Positions 1-29,513 of a DNA stretch of 32,841 bases are shown piece by piece. This stretch comes from Minisyncoccota bacterium. Its GTDB lineage: Bacteria; Patescibacteriota; Minisyncoccia; Minisyncoccales; JAQTVQ01. The DNA lies in NCBI GenBank assembly GCA_028706715.1, contig JAQTVQ010000007.1, positions 11,411 through 44,251 on the forward strand, in the 5' to 3' direction. A program made the translations under genes and the position numbers. Position 1 is the stretch's first letter. Each line of letters opens with the position of its first letter. The notes below the pieces were generated by a model, which made no database searches, had not been told where the DNA came from, and worked only from the letters and a program-made list of their open reading frames with translations.

Positions 1-127
1 GTTTTGCTTCCATATTCTTGGATGTTCGCCAAGAATGTTTTTTCGGGTGCGGTTTCCATGTTTGGGAAAACCGCGGCAGGGTTGGATCCTGGTAATGGAT
101 CTCCCAAAAAAGGTTAAACTACTCTTT
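1..127. repeat. 127-bp exact direct repeat, copy 1
   Basis: Bases 1-127 recur exactly at 339-465, an offset of 338. The copy begins at the window edge, so the true repeat may extend further left. Inside it are three inverted repeats able to form hairpins: ATTCTTGG/CCAAGAAT, GCGGTTTCC/GGGAAAACCGC and GGATCC/GGATCT. Bases 128-210 beyond the exact repeat stay recognisably similar in layout to 466-540 (see the hairpin entries). It is not CRISPR-like, because there are only two long copies. It could be a duplicated structured RNA or a duplicated small gene. Confidence 0.9.
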
Positions 128-153
128 TTGCCTCGCTTCTTTCTGTAATACCG

Positions 154-191
154 CCTCGTATCTCCCTCCTAGAAACCCTAAGAAGGAAATT
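154..191 (-). ncRNA. Position-conserved hairpin beside repeat copy 1
   Basis: Read on the minus strand, this segment forms a stem of TCCTTCTTAG with CTAGGAGGGA, pairing at every position with two G-U wobbles. It is flanked by CCG.TTTAAA on one side and GAGATACGAGGCG on the other. The same flanks surround a differently sequenced hairpin beside copy 2. Conserved pairing with changed sequence suggests selection on RNA structure, but two copies alone cannot prove it. Confidence 0.4.
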
Positions 192-214
192 TAAAACGGC
201 ATAAAAAAGGGAAA

Positions 215-263
215 AGATAGCCAGAGAGTCGTCGCGCTTTTACGCGAAGACTTCTGGCTATCT
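215..263 (-). terminator. Long terminator-like hairpin between repeat units
   Basis: AGATAGCCAG pairs with CTGGCTATCT, and the arms continue inward with a few mismatches to CGCG/CGCG. On the minus strand the stem is followed by TTTTCCCTTTTTT, which fits a rho-independent terminator for the copy-2 unit. The plus strand has only an A-rich flank. Confidence 0.65.
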
Positions 264-277
264 ATAAAAAAGAACTG

Positions 278-445
278 TTACAAGGCGATTATGCCGGATG
301 GAGCGGCTTCTCTGTTCAAGAAACCGAGAGGGAAGCTGGTTTTGCTTCCATATTCTTGGATGTTCGCCAAGAATGTTTTTTCGGGTGCGGTTTCCATGTT
401 TGGGAAAACCGCGGCAGGGTTGGATCCTGGTAATGGATCTCCCAA
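278..445 (-). CDS. Possible 55-aa ORF inside the repeat unit
   Basis: This untracked minus-strand frame starts at a TTG immediately after an in-frame TAA and ends 15 nt before the terminator-like hairpin at 215-263. Its composition looks protein-like (for example FPNMETAPEKTFLANIQEYG), with no membrane segment or signal peptide. The identical frame opens in repeat copy 1 from about position 107 and runs off the window. There is no Shine-Dalgarno sequence, and the only internal ATG would give about 40 aa. The same DNA also forms several hairpins and has an open frame on the other strand, so a noncoding role is at least as likely. Confidence 0.25.
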   Translation of the reverse strand: MGDPLPGSNPAAVFPNMETAPEKTFLANIQEYGSKTSFPLGFLNREAAPSGIIAL

Positions 446-465
446 AAAAGGTTAAACTACTCTTT
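339..465. repeat. 127-bp exact direct repeat, copy 2
   Basis: This is identical to bases 1-127. It lies between the minus-strand terminator-like hairpin at 215-263 and the terminator of the 46-aa ORF at 575-595, so copy 2 with its flanks could be a self-contained minus-strand unit of about 300 nt. Exact identity across 127 bp next to diverged flanks points to a recent duplication or to gene conversion. Confidence 0.9.
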
Positions 466-499
466 ATCCGTCGGCTATAATTATCGCCTCATATCTTCT

Positions 500-1777: not shown

Positions 1778-1806
1778 TATTTATCAAACCAGCCGGAATT
1801 TGTCAA
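1778..1806 (-). promoter_or_regulatory. Promoter upstream of the leader ORF and hypothetical gene
   Basis: TTGACA (1801-1806), a 17-nt spacer and TAAATA (1778-1783) lie on the minus strand. The -35 is perfect and the -10 is weak. The predicted start is about 1771, giving roughly 150-260 nt of leader before the hypothetical gene, depending on its start codon. Confidence 0.45.
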
Positions 1807-16177: not shown

Positions 16178-16205
16178 ATCTTAACGGATTTTGTTTAAAA
16201 TTCAA
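16178..16205 (-). promoter_or_regulatory. Promoter of argS
   Basis: TTGAAT (16200-16205), a 16-nt spacer and TAAGAT (16178-16183) lie on the minus strand, ending 6 nt before the argS ATG. The predicted start is on or next to the A of the ATG. The facing smpB promoter has the same -10. Confidence 0.5.
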
Positions 16206-16277: not shown

Positions 16278-16307
16278 TGGACAAGCATTAATTAAACGGT
16301 TTAAGAT
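16278..16307 (+). promoter_or_regulatory. Promoter of smpB-ssrA
   Basis: TGGACA (16278-16283), an 18-nt spacer and TAAGAT (16302-16307) end 6 nt before the smpB ATG at 16314. This predicts a leaderless smpB message. No other promoter is evident before ssrA, so ssrA is probably processed from the same transcript. Confidence 0.55.
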
Positions 16308-16781: not shown

Positions 16782-17130
16782 GGGGGCGATTGTTTTGACA
16801 GAAAAATTCTTTTCAAAGCAAGCAAGCCGAGCTTGATAAGCGGCTCGCAAATATGCTTATCAAAAGTATAAGTGCCAACTTATTCAAAAAACCCGCATTA
16901 GCTTTAGCTTAATGCCATCCGCCAGCCGATTCTCAATAAGCTTCAGCGGGTGTCGATCATTGAGATAGGCAGCTGTCTTTCCTAAAACAGCAGCCGAACA
17001 GGCTTAGGATAGAAAAGCTGAAATTTTTGCCTGTTGCATATTCAGTTTTTCAAAAAATCAAAACAGGCTAAGCTTGTAGAAAACTTTGGATAATTTTTTT
17101 GGACGGGGTTTCAATACCCCCGCCTCCACC
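16782..17130 (+). ncRNA. ssrA: Transfer-messenger RNA (tmRNA)
   Basis: This RNA rescues stalled ribosomes and encodes a degradation tag. The acceptor stem is GGGGGCG (16782-16788) with CGCCTCC (17121-17127), which includes the G3-U70 wobble needed for alanine charging. The T arm is GGGGT/ACCCC with TTCAAT in the loop. After discriminator A at 17128 only CC is encoded, followed by T, so the final A would be added by the CCA enzyme. The resume codon and tag lie at 16874-16912, and several hairpin-rich segments between tag and T arm are consistent with pseudoknots. It is about 349 nt long and lies 6 nt downstream of smpB. Confidence is high because both termini, the tag and the neighbour agree. 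Confidence 0.95.
16874..16912 (+). other. tmRNA tag-peptide reading frame
   Basis: The frame starts at resume codon GCC and encodes ANLFKKPALALA before TAA. With the alanine carried by tmRNA, the added tag would be AANLFKKPALALA. The hydrophobic ALALA end fits recognition by tail-specific or ClpXP/Lon-type proteases, and KK in the middle differs from the acidic middle of the E. coli tag. Confidence 0.9.
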
Positions 17131-17143
17131 TCGTAAGCTTAAT

Positions 17144-17217: not shown

Positions 17218-17232
17218 AAGAGGATATACATC
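17218..17232 (+). promoter_or_regulatory. Ribosome binding site that sets the infC start
   Basis: AAGAGGA (17218-17224) lies 5 nt before ATC (17230-17232). In this frame there is an upstream stop at 17203-17205 and no ATG, GTG or TTG before conserved IF3 residues, so only ATT, ATA or ATC could start the protein. The spacing favours ATC. Confidence 0.7.
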
Positions 17233-22794: not shown

Positions 22795-22814
22795 AATTTT
22801 CGTTTTCGTATTTT

Positions 22815-22842
22815 TAAAAGCTCCCTTTTTGCTAAGGGAGCT
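22815..22842 (-). promoter_or_regulatory. Hairpin in the greA leader
   Basis: AGCTCCCTT pairs with AAGGGAGCT (22819-22827/22834-22842). On the minus strand it is followed by TTTT then AAAAAT, so it is a weak terminator or attenuator between the leader ORF and greA. The T run is short. Confidence 0.5.
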
Positions 22843-22888
22843 GCTTCTGTGTTTTTTATTTGTGTTAAACTTATAAGCTTTCTCCCTT

Positions 22889-22981
22889 TTATGGCTGGCC
22901 TCCTCCGCAAATTAAAAATTTACCGGCAAGACTAACGGTTAAAGGGCAATGCATTGCAATCTGAAGCTTAAGTTTCCTCAT
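22889..22981 (-). CDS. Candidate 30-aa leader ORF upstream of greA
   Basis: This untracked frame runs from an ATG at 22981 to TAA at 22889-22891. The peptide begins MRKLKLQIAMHC, is basic then moderately hydrophobic, and ends in LICGGGQP. The ATG is 10 nt past the -10 of the best promoter in the window, so it would be the first ORF on the greA transcript. A hairpin follows before greA. No family is recognised. Its position makes it a candidate leader peptide, but coding potential is unproven. Confidence 0.35.
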   Translation of the reverse strand: MRKLKLQIAMHCPLTVSLAGKFLICGGGQP

Positions 22982-22991
22982 ATTAAATATA

Positions 22992-23020
22992 ATAATAGGC
23001 TCTGCAAAATTCTTTGTCAA
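22992..23020 (-). promoter_or_regulatory. Promoter of the greA transcript
   Basis: TTGACA (23015-23020), a 17-nt spacer and TATTAT (22992-22997) form a near-consensus sigma-70 promoter on the minus strand. It lies between the ATP operon terminator and the leader ORF. Confidence 0.8.
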
Positions 23021-28758: not shown

Positions 28759-28769
<11 letters not shown>

Positions 28770-29475
28770 GGAGAACGGTCGCCGTCGTATAAAAAACCAC
28801 TACCAGCGAAGAAAAAATAAAAGCCTGTATAAACCCGACCAAAATTTCCAGCGCCAAAAAAGGCAAGGGAATCAAATAAGCAAGACTCCAATGGATCCCC
28901 GTCGCCACCACTATCAATAATGTTTCTCCGGCAAACAAGTTTCCAAAAAGCCTCATGGACAAAGAAATTATTCTGGTAAACTCTCCCAGCCCCTCCAGTA
29001 TCCCCACAAAAAAAGCCACAGGGCTTCTAAAATCAAGAAATCTTTTAAGGTAAGAGAAAAAGCCAAGTTCTTTAACCGCGGAAAAATTAATGAAAAAAAC
29101 AGACAGAATCGCCAAAGCCAAAGTAAAGTTTATATCAGAGCTTGGAGACCTTAAAAAGTGAAAAAGCCCCAATCCCGGCAAAAGCTCGGTTAGATTGGAT
29201 AAAAGTATCATTAAGAACAAAGTAACCGCTATGGGAAAAACTTTTTCCGATTTCGCCCTGTTGTGGGTAACGCTGTCAATGAAATTAAGATAGCTTTCCA
29301 AAATCCATTCTAAAAAATTTTGGATTTTTCCGGGAGAAATGCTGTTTTTTTTAAAAGCCCAAAAAAACAGGAGAGATAAAAATCCTCCTATTAAAACAAT
29401 TAATAAGAAAGTGTTGGTAACCGGAAAATCGCCAATTTGGAAAAATTTTGCGGCTTCAATGGATATTTCTTCCAT
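28759..29475 (-). CDS. atpB: ATP synthase Fo a subunit
   Basis: Subunit a forms the proton half-channels against the c-ring. The 238-aa membrane protein has the conserved arginine in ISLSMRLFGNLFAGE, NLTELLPGLG, and PLPFLALEILVGFIQAFIFSSL near the C-terminus, all diagnostic. It is the first gene of the operon. A promoter lies 8 nt before the ATG and there is no Shine-Dalgarno sequence, so leaderless translation is predicted. Confidence 0.97.
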
Positions 29476-29483
29476 AATGTTCT

Positions 29484-29513
29484 ATTGTAGCCTCGCAAAA
29501 TCAAAAATGTCAA
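29484..29513 (-). promoter_or_regulatory. Promoter of the ATP synthase operon
   Basis: TTGACA (29508-29513), an 18-nt spacer and TACAAT (29484-29489) lie on the minus strand, a near-consensus promoter. The -10 ends 8 nt before the atpB ATG, so the transcript should start at or within a few bases of the start codon. Confidence 0.8.

What the first reader, a model, noticed from the sequence alone, without database searches (positions are those of the whole stretch)
29475..29513. Recurrent promoter placement predicts leaderless mRNAs
At atpB (8 nt), smpB (6 nt), argS (6 nt), the 46-aa ORF (9 nt), the ORF at 1769 (8 nt) and the greA leader ORF (10 nt), the -10 box ends just before an ATG, so transcription should begin at or near the start codon. 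metG and the Nudix gene have weaker boxes with the same 6-nt spacing. Few genes here have a Shine-Dalgarno sequence; infC is a notable exception.
Basis: partly seen in the sequence, partly recalled or inferred. Interest (0 to 1): 0.6.

Follow-up and report, generated by a model that had tools for sequence, protein, structure and literature searches.

The report
Bacteria with SD-blind ribosomes, leaderless genes
Many genes in this tiny uncultured bacterium have their promoter so close to the start codon that the message should begin at the start codon itself, and the ribosomal RNA of its whole order has lost the sequence bacteria normally use to find gene starts.

Summary
Genome-wide (755 kb, Patescibacteria), 99 of 339 promoter-facing ATG genes carry TANNNT 6-9 nt before the ATG. 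Dinucleotide shuffles give 47±6, shifted windows about 45, and column permutation 69±7 (z 4.6). Operon-internal genes show no excess over column permutation. A -35 element sits at the canonical 17 nt. So leaderless or near-leaderless transcripts are predicted for roughly 15-25% of such genes, a minority. No Shine-Dalgarno (SD) signal exists, while the same code finds it in E. coli. The infC "exception" is not conserved. 5' ends could not be mapped.

Following this led to something larger. The 16S rRNA of this genome ends GGAUCA-AUUAUUUUUUUG: helix 45 is intact but the anti-SD CCUCC is gone. In the same order, 72 of 73 sampled genomes with this 16S end lack CCUCC (22 families; the exception is a probable contaminant). 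Every match outside the class (32) keeps CACCUCC; the class is mixed. The leaderless placement is also strong in class members that keep the anti-SD. The likely order of events is that initiation stopped using SD first and the anti-SD then decayed. I found no report of this, but two key papers were not readable.

The parts
29473..29475 (-). atpB start codon (ATG); gene 28759-29475, F0F1 ATP synthase subunit a
   Evidence: TIGR01131, 120.7 bits against cut-off 102.6
29484..29489 (-). -10 box TACAAT of atpB, 8 nt before ATG
   Evidence: sequence; same-genus relative has TAGAAT at the same 8 nt (L288)
29508..29513 (-). -35 box TTGACA of atpB (18 nt from -10)
   Evidence: sequence; conserved in L288
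16302..16307 (+). -10 box TAAGAT, 6 nt before smpB ATG (16314); -35-like TGGACA at 16278-16283
   Evidence: smpB orthologues in G439, G463 and G745 also have TANNNT exactly 6 nt before ATG; gene identified by NF003843
16178..16183 (-). -10 box TAAGAT, 6 nt before argS ATG (16171); -35-like TTGAAT at 16200-16205
   Evidence: TIGR00456
772..777 (-). -10 box TAATTT, 9 nt before the ATG (762) of a 46-aa ORF; -35 TTGACA at 795-800
1778..1783 (-). -10 box TAAATA, 8 nt before the ATG (1769) of a 23-aa ORF; -35 TTGACA at 1801-1806
22992..22997 (-). -10 box TATTAT, 10 nt before the ATG (22981) of a 30-aa ORF in the greA leader; -35 TTGACA at 23015-23020
   Evidence: greA by NF001263
17230..17232 (+). 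probable AUC start codon of infC; the SD-like AAGAGG at 17218-17223 is not conserved
   Evidence: ATCAACAAT conserved in G439, G463 and G675 while AAGAGG is absent there; TIGR00168

Best explanation
This Patescibacteria lineage starts translation without Shine-Dalgarno pairing. Its single 16S rRNA keeps helix 45 and GGAUCA but has an AU-rich tail in place of CACCUCC (shown). A minority of promoter-proximal genes have a sigma70-type promoter whose -10 box ends 6-9 nt before the ATG (shown statistically). RNA polymerase should therefore start at, or within about 1-3 nt of, the A of the ATG, giving leaderless or near-leaderless mRNAs (inferred from the known -10 to +1 distance). These would be taken up by ribosomes carrying fMet-tRNA through start-codon pairing at the 5' end (inferred, as for other leaderless mRNAs). 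Operon-internal and leadered genes would rely on translational coupling, unstructured AU-rich starts and an initiator context with U at -1 (57-65%, shown; mechanism inferred). SD-independent initiation came first, because relatives that keep the anti-SD show the same promoter placement and weak or no SD signal. The anti-SD then decayed throughout this order and in some other families of the class.
For: -10 enrichment at 6-9 nt with several kinds of control. -35 at 17 nt, sharpest in the relatives G463 (13 of 37) and G439 (10 of 43). Same signature in class members with the anti-SD: G675 (GC 52%) 52/144 vs 11 shuffled and G745 49/157 vs 20. E. coli K-12 as control: 2/78 vs 5.5 for -10 placement, and SD motifs in 52% vs 20% shuffled. 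Orthologues share the state between order and anti-SD-keeping class (odds ratio 2.7, p 0.007). 16S tail. No pairing of upstream regions with the AU-rich tail beyond shuffles in promoter-facing genes. bS21 over the family cut-off in 0 of 34 order members vs 13 of 23 anti-SD-keeping class members.
Against: No mapped 5' ends or mature 16S 3' ends. The excess covers only about 15% of promoter-facing genes, so most initiation is unexplained by leaderlessness. Ortholog conservation of the state is weak within the order (p 0.38) and significant only in the cross comparison. At 8-10 nt spacing a short leader is as likely as none. Two of seven anti-SD-less genomes from other families keep a good bS21, so bS21 loss is not a necessary companion. 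G372, from another class, keeps the anti-SD, shows no SD and no leaderless excess, so SD loss and leaderless placement are separable.
Confidence: 0.78

Rival explanations
1. The -10-like boxes before ATGs are a by-product of AT-rich start regions, not promoters.
For: Upstream regions are very AT-rich; tight operonic genes also exceed dinucleotide shuffles (42 vs 21).
Against: Column permutation, which keeps position-specific composition, still leaves z 4.7 for promoter-facing genes and only 1.0 for tight ones; z is 9.5 in the 52% GC relative G675. -35 hexamers peak at 17 nt. Non-start intergenic ATGs show 8.6% vs 29%.
Confidence: 0.06
2. The mRNAs have short but real leaders (3-15 nt), and the ribosome binds an unstructured AU-rich start, perhaps with the S1-like protein; strict leaderlessness is rare.
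For: Spacers of 8-10 nt are common; A-rich -3 to -12 and U at -1 occur also in operonic genes; a multi-domain S1-like protein is kept; several atpB orthologues in other families place the box 8-13 nt away.
Against: The single most populated spacer near the ATG is 6 nt (33-34 genes in G000, 18 in G463, 24 in G745), which puts +1 on the A of ATG.
Confidence: 0.3
3. A new SD-like code pairs with the AU-rich 16S tail.
For: Upstream regions are A-rich and the tail is U-rich.
Against: Duplex energies with the genome's own tail are not better than shuffles in promoter-facing genes (+0.14 kcal) and only marginally so in tight genes (-0.21+-0.10), against -1.0 in E. coli tight genes. The tail sequence varies freely between families.
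Confidence: 0.04
4. The missing anti-SD is an assembly, contamination or intron artefact.
For: The 16S end in this genome is on a short contig (C23) apart from the window contig; CPR rRNA genes can hold insertions.
Against: 72 of 73 order genomes from 22 families agree, including 16S genes inside single 660-kb contigs (G463, G439). The same-genus relative has nearly the same tail. Helix 45 is paired and no CCTCC follows within about 280 nt before a tRNA gene in this genome.
Confidence: 0.03

Closest known systems
Leaderless (TA-led) bacterial genes of Actinobacteria and Deinococcus-Thermus (Zheng et al. 2011, PMC3160421)
   Same: TANNNT about 10 bp upstream of the start codon, significant over dinucleotide shuffles, at a comparable share of genes.
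   Different: Those groups also use SD motifs and keep the anti-SD (from general knowledge); here there is no SD signal and no anti-SD.
Bacteria lacking the anti-SD: Flavobacteriia (Chryseobacterium and relatives), some Mycoplasma, Carsonella, Hodgkinia (Amin et al. 2018, PMC6107228; PMC10783764)
   Same: No CCUCC in the 16S tail and no SD upstream of genes.
   Different: Those cases are mostly genera or scattered species; here loss spans an order-level clade (22 families sampled) plus some other families of the class, together with leaderless promoter placement. The main texts of the two surveys did not yield a mention of Parcubacteria, Patescibacteria or CPR in my term searches.
Bacteroidetes/Flavobacterium johnsoniae SD-independent initiation (PMC6847099)
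   Same: No SD in mRNAs; start context matters.
   Different: Flavobacterium johnsoniae keeps the anti-SD (PMC6847099); here it is gone, and the favoured context is U at -1.
Mammalian mitochondrial leaderless translation (PMC7797035)
   Same: Small rRNA without anti-SD (PMC10582724) and leaderless mRNAs.
   Different: Mitochondrial mRNAs arise by processing (general knowledge); here the 5' end would be set by promoter position in a whole cellular genome.

Membership tests
TA-led/leaderless bacterial genes | -10-like TANNNT box about 10 bp upstream of the start codon, above dinucleotide shuffles | tested here: met
   99/339 vs 46.8+-6.3; z 4.7 against column permutation
TA-led/leaderless bacterial genes | box is part of a promoter (-35 at about 17 nt) | tested here: met
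   peak at 17 nt in G000, G463 and G439
TA-led/leaderless bacterial genes | mapped transcript 5' end at the start codon | not testable with these tools
   no transcript data held
Organisms lacking the anti-SD | helix 45 present but no CCUCC in the 16S tail | tested here: met
Organisms lacking the anti-SD | no SD motif enriched upstream of genes | tested here: met
   SD 4-mers 10.4% vs 13.1% shuffled; E. coli 51.6% vs 19.7%
Organisms lacking the anti-SD | mature 16S 3' end mapped on RNA | not testable with these tools
   gene sequence only
SD-led initiation | anti-SD in 16S plus SD upstream of genes | tested here: not met

The most novel reading that the evidence does not exclude
A bacterial order of dozens of families, plus other families of the same class, has dispensed with the Shine-Dalgarno mechanism at the rRNA level, after leaderless and context-driven initiation had already taken over. 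This would be, to my knowledge, the largest natural experiment in anti-SD loss in bacteria.
Probability: 0.7. Interest if true: 0.8.

Novelty: new variant of a known kind. Interest (0 to 1): 0.66.

Why it matters
The CCUCC anti-SD is among the most conserved sequences in bacteria, and whether it is dispensable has been debated for decades. An order-wide clade without it, beside relatives in the same class that keep it, allows a direct test of what the anti-SD is needed for. Practically, gene finders that score SD motifs may misplace starts in these uncultured bacteria. A class member, Minisyncoccus archaeiphilus, is in co-culture (PMC12281837) and could be used for 5'-end mapping; whether it lacks the anti-SD was not tested here.

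Tried and rejected
AT-composition artefact: rejected by permutation, -35 spacing and the GC-rich relative. Alternative SD pairing with the AU-rich tail: not supported. infC as a true SD gene: rejected, not conserved. 'Leaderless because the anti-SD was lost': rejected as the order of events, since anti-SD-keeping relatives show the same placement. 'Class-specific leaderlessness', which I first inferred from G372: withdrawn, because the strict promoter-6/7-ATG pattern occurs in 48 of 116 phylum genomes (2 hits of the reversed pattern) and 47 of 112 class genomes (4 hits); that reversed-pattern control does not isolate spacing. Loss of Era as a companion of anti-SD loss: rejected, because Era was found in none of the 59 genomes tested, including those with the anti-SD, as the literature also says for most CPR (PMC10582724, PMC12641178). 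bS21 loss as a strict companion: only partly, since G777 and G815 lack the anti-SD and keep it.

Full report
Setting. The window is part of contig C7 of a 755,410-base, 24-contig Patescibacteria genome, 97% complete, GC 40%. I rebuilt the genome from loci and called 637 genes with a codon-based model that uses no upstream information, so that start calls could not be biased towards promoter motifs.

Check of the observation. Every named box is present at the stated distance. In 339 ATG genes with at least 50 nt upstream gap, TANNNT occurs 6-9 nt before the ATG in 99. Dinucleotide shuffles give 46.8±6.3, equally wide windows further upstream about 45, and column permutation, which keeps base composition at each position, 68.8±6.6. 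Operon-internal genes show no excess over column permutation. Away from the ATG itself the most populated spacer is exactly 6 nt, which by the usual -10 to +1 distance puts +1 on the A of ATG. TTGACA-like hexamers peak at 17 nt from these boxes. The whole arrangement with a perfect TTGACA occurs 10 times at 5-9 nt against 1.5±1.2 in block-shuffled genomes; promoters of this kind also lie at other distances, at about 4 per 5-nt bin beyond 10 nt and 10 at 0-4 nt. The excess is about 15% of promoter-facing genes.

Shine-Dalgarno. GGAG/GAGG is found in 4.4% of start regions against 3.5% in shuffles. The same code on 150 kb of E. coli K-12 finds SD motifs in 52% against 20% shuffled, and no -10 excess near ATG. 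So the absence is real. infC most likely starts at a conserved AUC; its AAGAGG is not found in orthologues from four genomes.

Why there is no SD. The only 16S gene found (C23) matches the Rfam model to its end with a sound helix 45 (GCACGGGUAGC-GGAA-GCUGCUCGUGG) followed by AUCA-AUUAUUUUUUUG; CCUCC is missing. All 22 matched 16S ends in the first sample (this genome and 21 relatives of its order) also lack it. In a larger sample of the order, 73 genomes had this 16S end and 72 lack CCUCC, from 22 families; two have CCUCA. The exception, G452, has a very different helix 45 and looks like a foreign contig. All 32 matches from outside the class read CACCUCC. In the class outside this order, most matches keep it (for example f49, f219, f230), while f216, f204, f253, f243 and f64 lack it and f50 has CUUCUUAUCU. 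A pattern scan of one genome per GTDB species gives names for tails without it: Staskawicz-, Nealson-, Gribaldo-, Lipton-, Harrison-, Jorgensen-, Nomura- and Campbellbacteria; some other hits in that scan have foreign helix 45 sequences and look like contaminants. Two order members carry their 16S inside single 661-kb contigs, so binning error is not the cause.

Comparative test. I ran the same pipeline on about 400 kb each of two order members and three genomes that keep the anti-SD. Promoter placement 6-9 nt before ATG is enriched in G463 and G439 (order) and most strongly in G675 and G745 (same class, anti-SD kept; G675 has GC 52%, 52/144 vs 11 shuffled). It is not enriched in G372 (another class, column-permutation z 0). 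Strict promoter patterns 6-7 nt before ATG are nevertheless spread through the phylum. SD motifs are weak or absent in all of them. Orthologues tend to share the state (odds ratio 2.7, p 0.007, order vs anti-SD-keeping class; not significant within the order). smpB keeps a box exactly 6 nt before ATG in four genomes, and atpB keeps it in the same-genus relative with the surrounding bases changed. This ordering says that SD-free initiation preceded anti-SD loss.

Companions. bS21, which sits next to the SD helix, passes its family cut-off in 0 of 34 order members tested and 13 of 23 anti-SD-keeping class members, but two anti-SD-less genomes of other families keep it. An S1-like multi-domain protein is present in nearly all. 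Era was not found in any genome tested. U precedes the start codon in 57-65% of genes in this genome, operonic ones included, against 22-32% in E. coli. Pairing of U(-1) with A37 of initiator tRNA is a possible reason (own knowledge, not tested).

Literature. The leaderless category itself is known (PMC3160421). Anti-SD loss is known mainly in Bacteroidetes, Mycoplasma and insect endosymbionts (PMC6107228, PMC10783764). Searches of the held library for Parcubacteria, Patescibacteria or CPR together with Shine-Dalgarno or anti-SD returned nothing on this. Tsurumaki et al. 2022 (CPR ribosomes) and Nikolaeva et al. 2021 (small genomes) could not be read, so prior mention is not excluded.

Shown and inferred. 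Shown: box placement, its enrichment and -35 spacing, absence of SD, absence of CCUCC in the 16S gene across the order, and the same placement in anti-SD-keeping relatives. Inferred: start of transcription at ATG, direct loading of leaderless mRNA, coupling for internal genes, and the order of events.

Noticed in passing
window 16782-17131 (+): A tmRNA gene (Rfam RF00023, 140.5 bits) lies between smpB and infC; ARAGORN missed it.
   Followed up: partly
window 17230-17232 (+): infC appears to start with AUC (ATCAACAAT conserved in several relatives); in G439 and G463 it lies closely downstream of what looks like the 3' end of tmRNA.
   Followed up: partly
G000 genome-wide: Strong preference for T immediately before ATG (57-65%), also in tightly spaced operonic genes where no promoter is expected.
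   Followed up: partly
window 22795-23020 (-): The greA leader has a strong promoter, a 30-aa ORF and a hairpin followed by T-rich sequence just before greA, which looks like an attenuator.
   Followed up: no
window 1-480: A direct repeat of roughly 120 bases, seen near 1-120 and again near 338-460, at the window start.
   Followed up: no
G452:C43:616-669: The only CCTCC-bearing 16S end in the order sample, with a very different helix 45; probably a contaminant contig.
   Followed up: no
Genome-contig loci such as L079, L082, L115, L125, L134: Identical short rRNA tails (GTAGGTGAACCTGCGGAAGGATCATTAAAGAAA) in unrelated bacterial genomes; they look like foreign contigs in assemblies.
   Followed up: no
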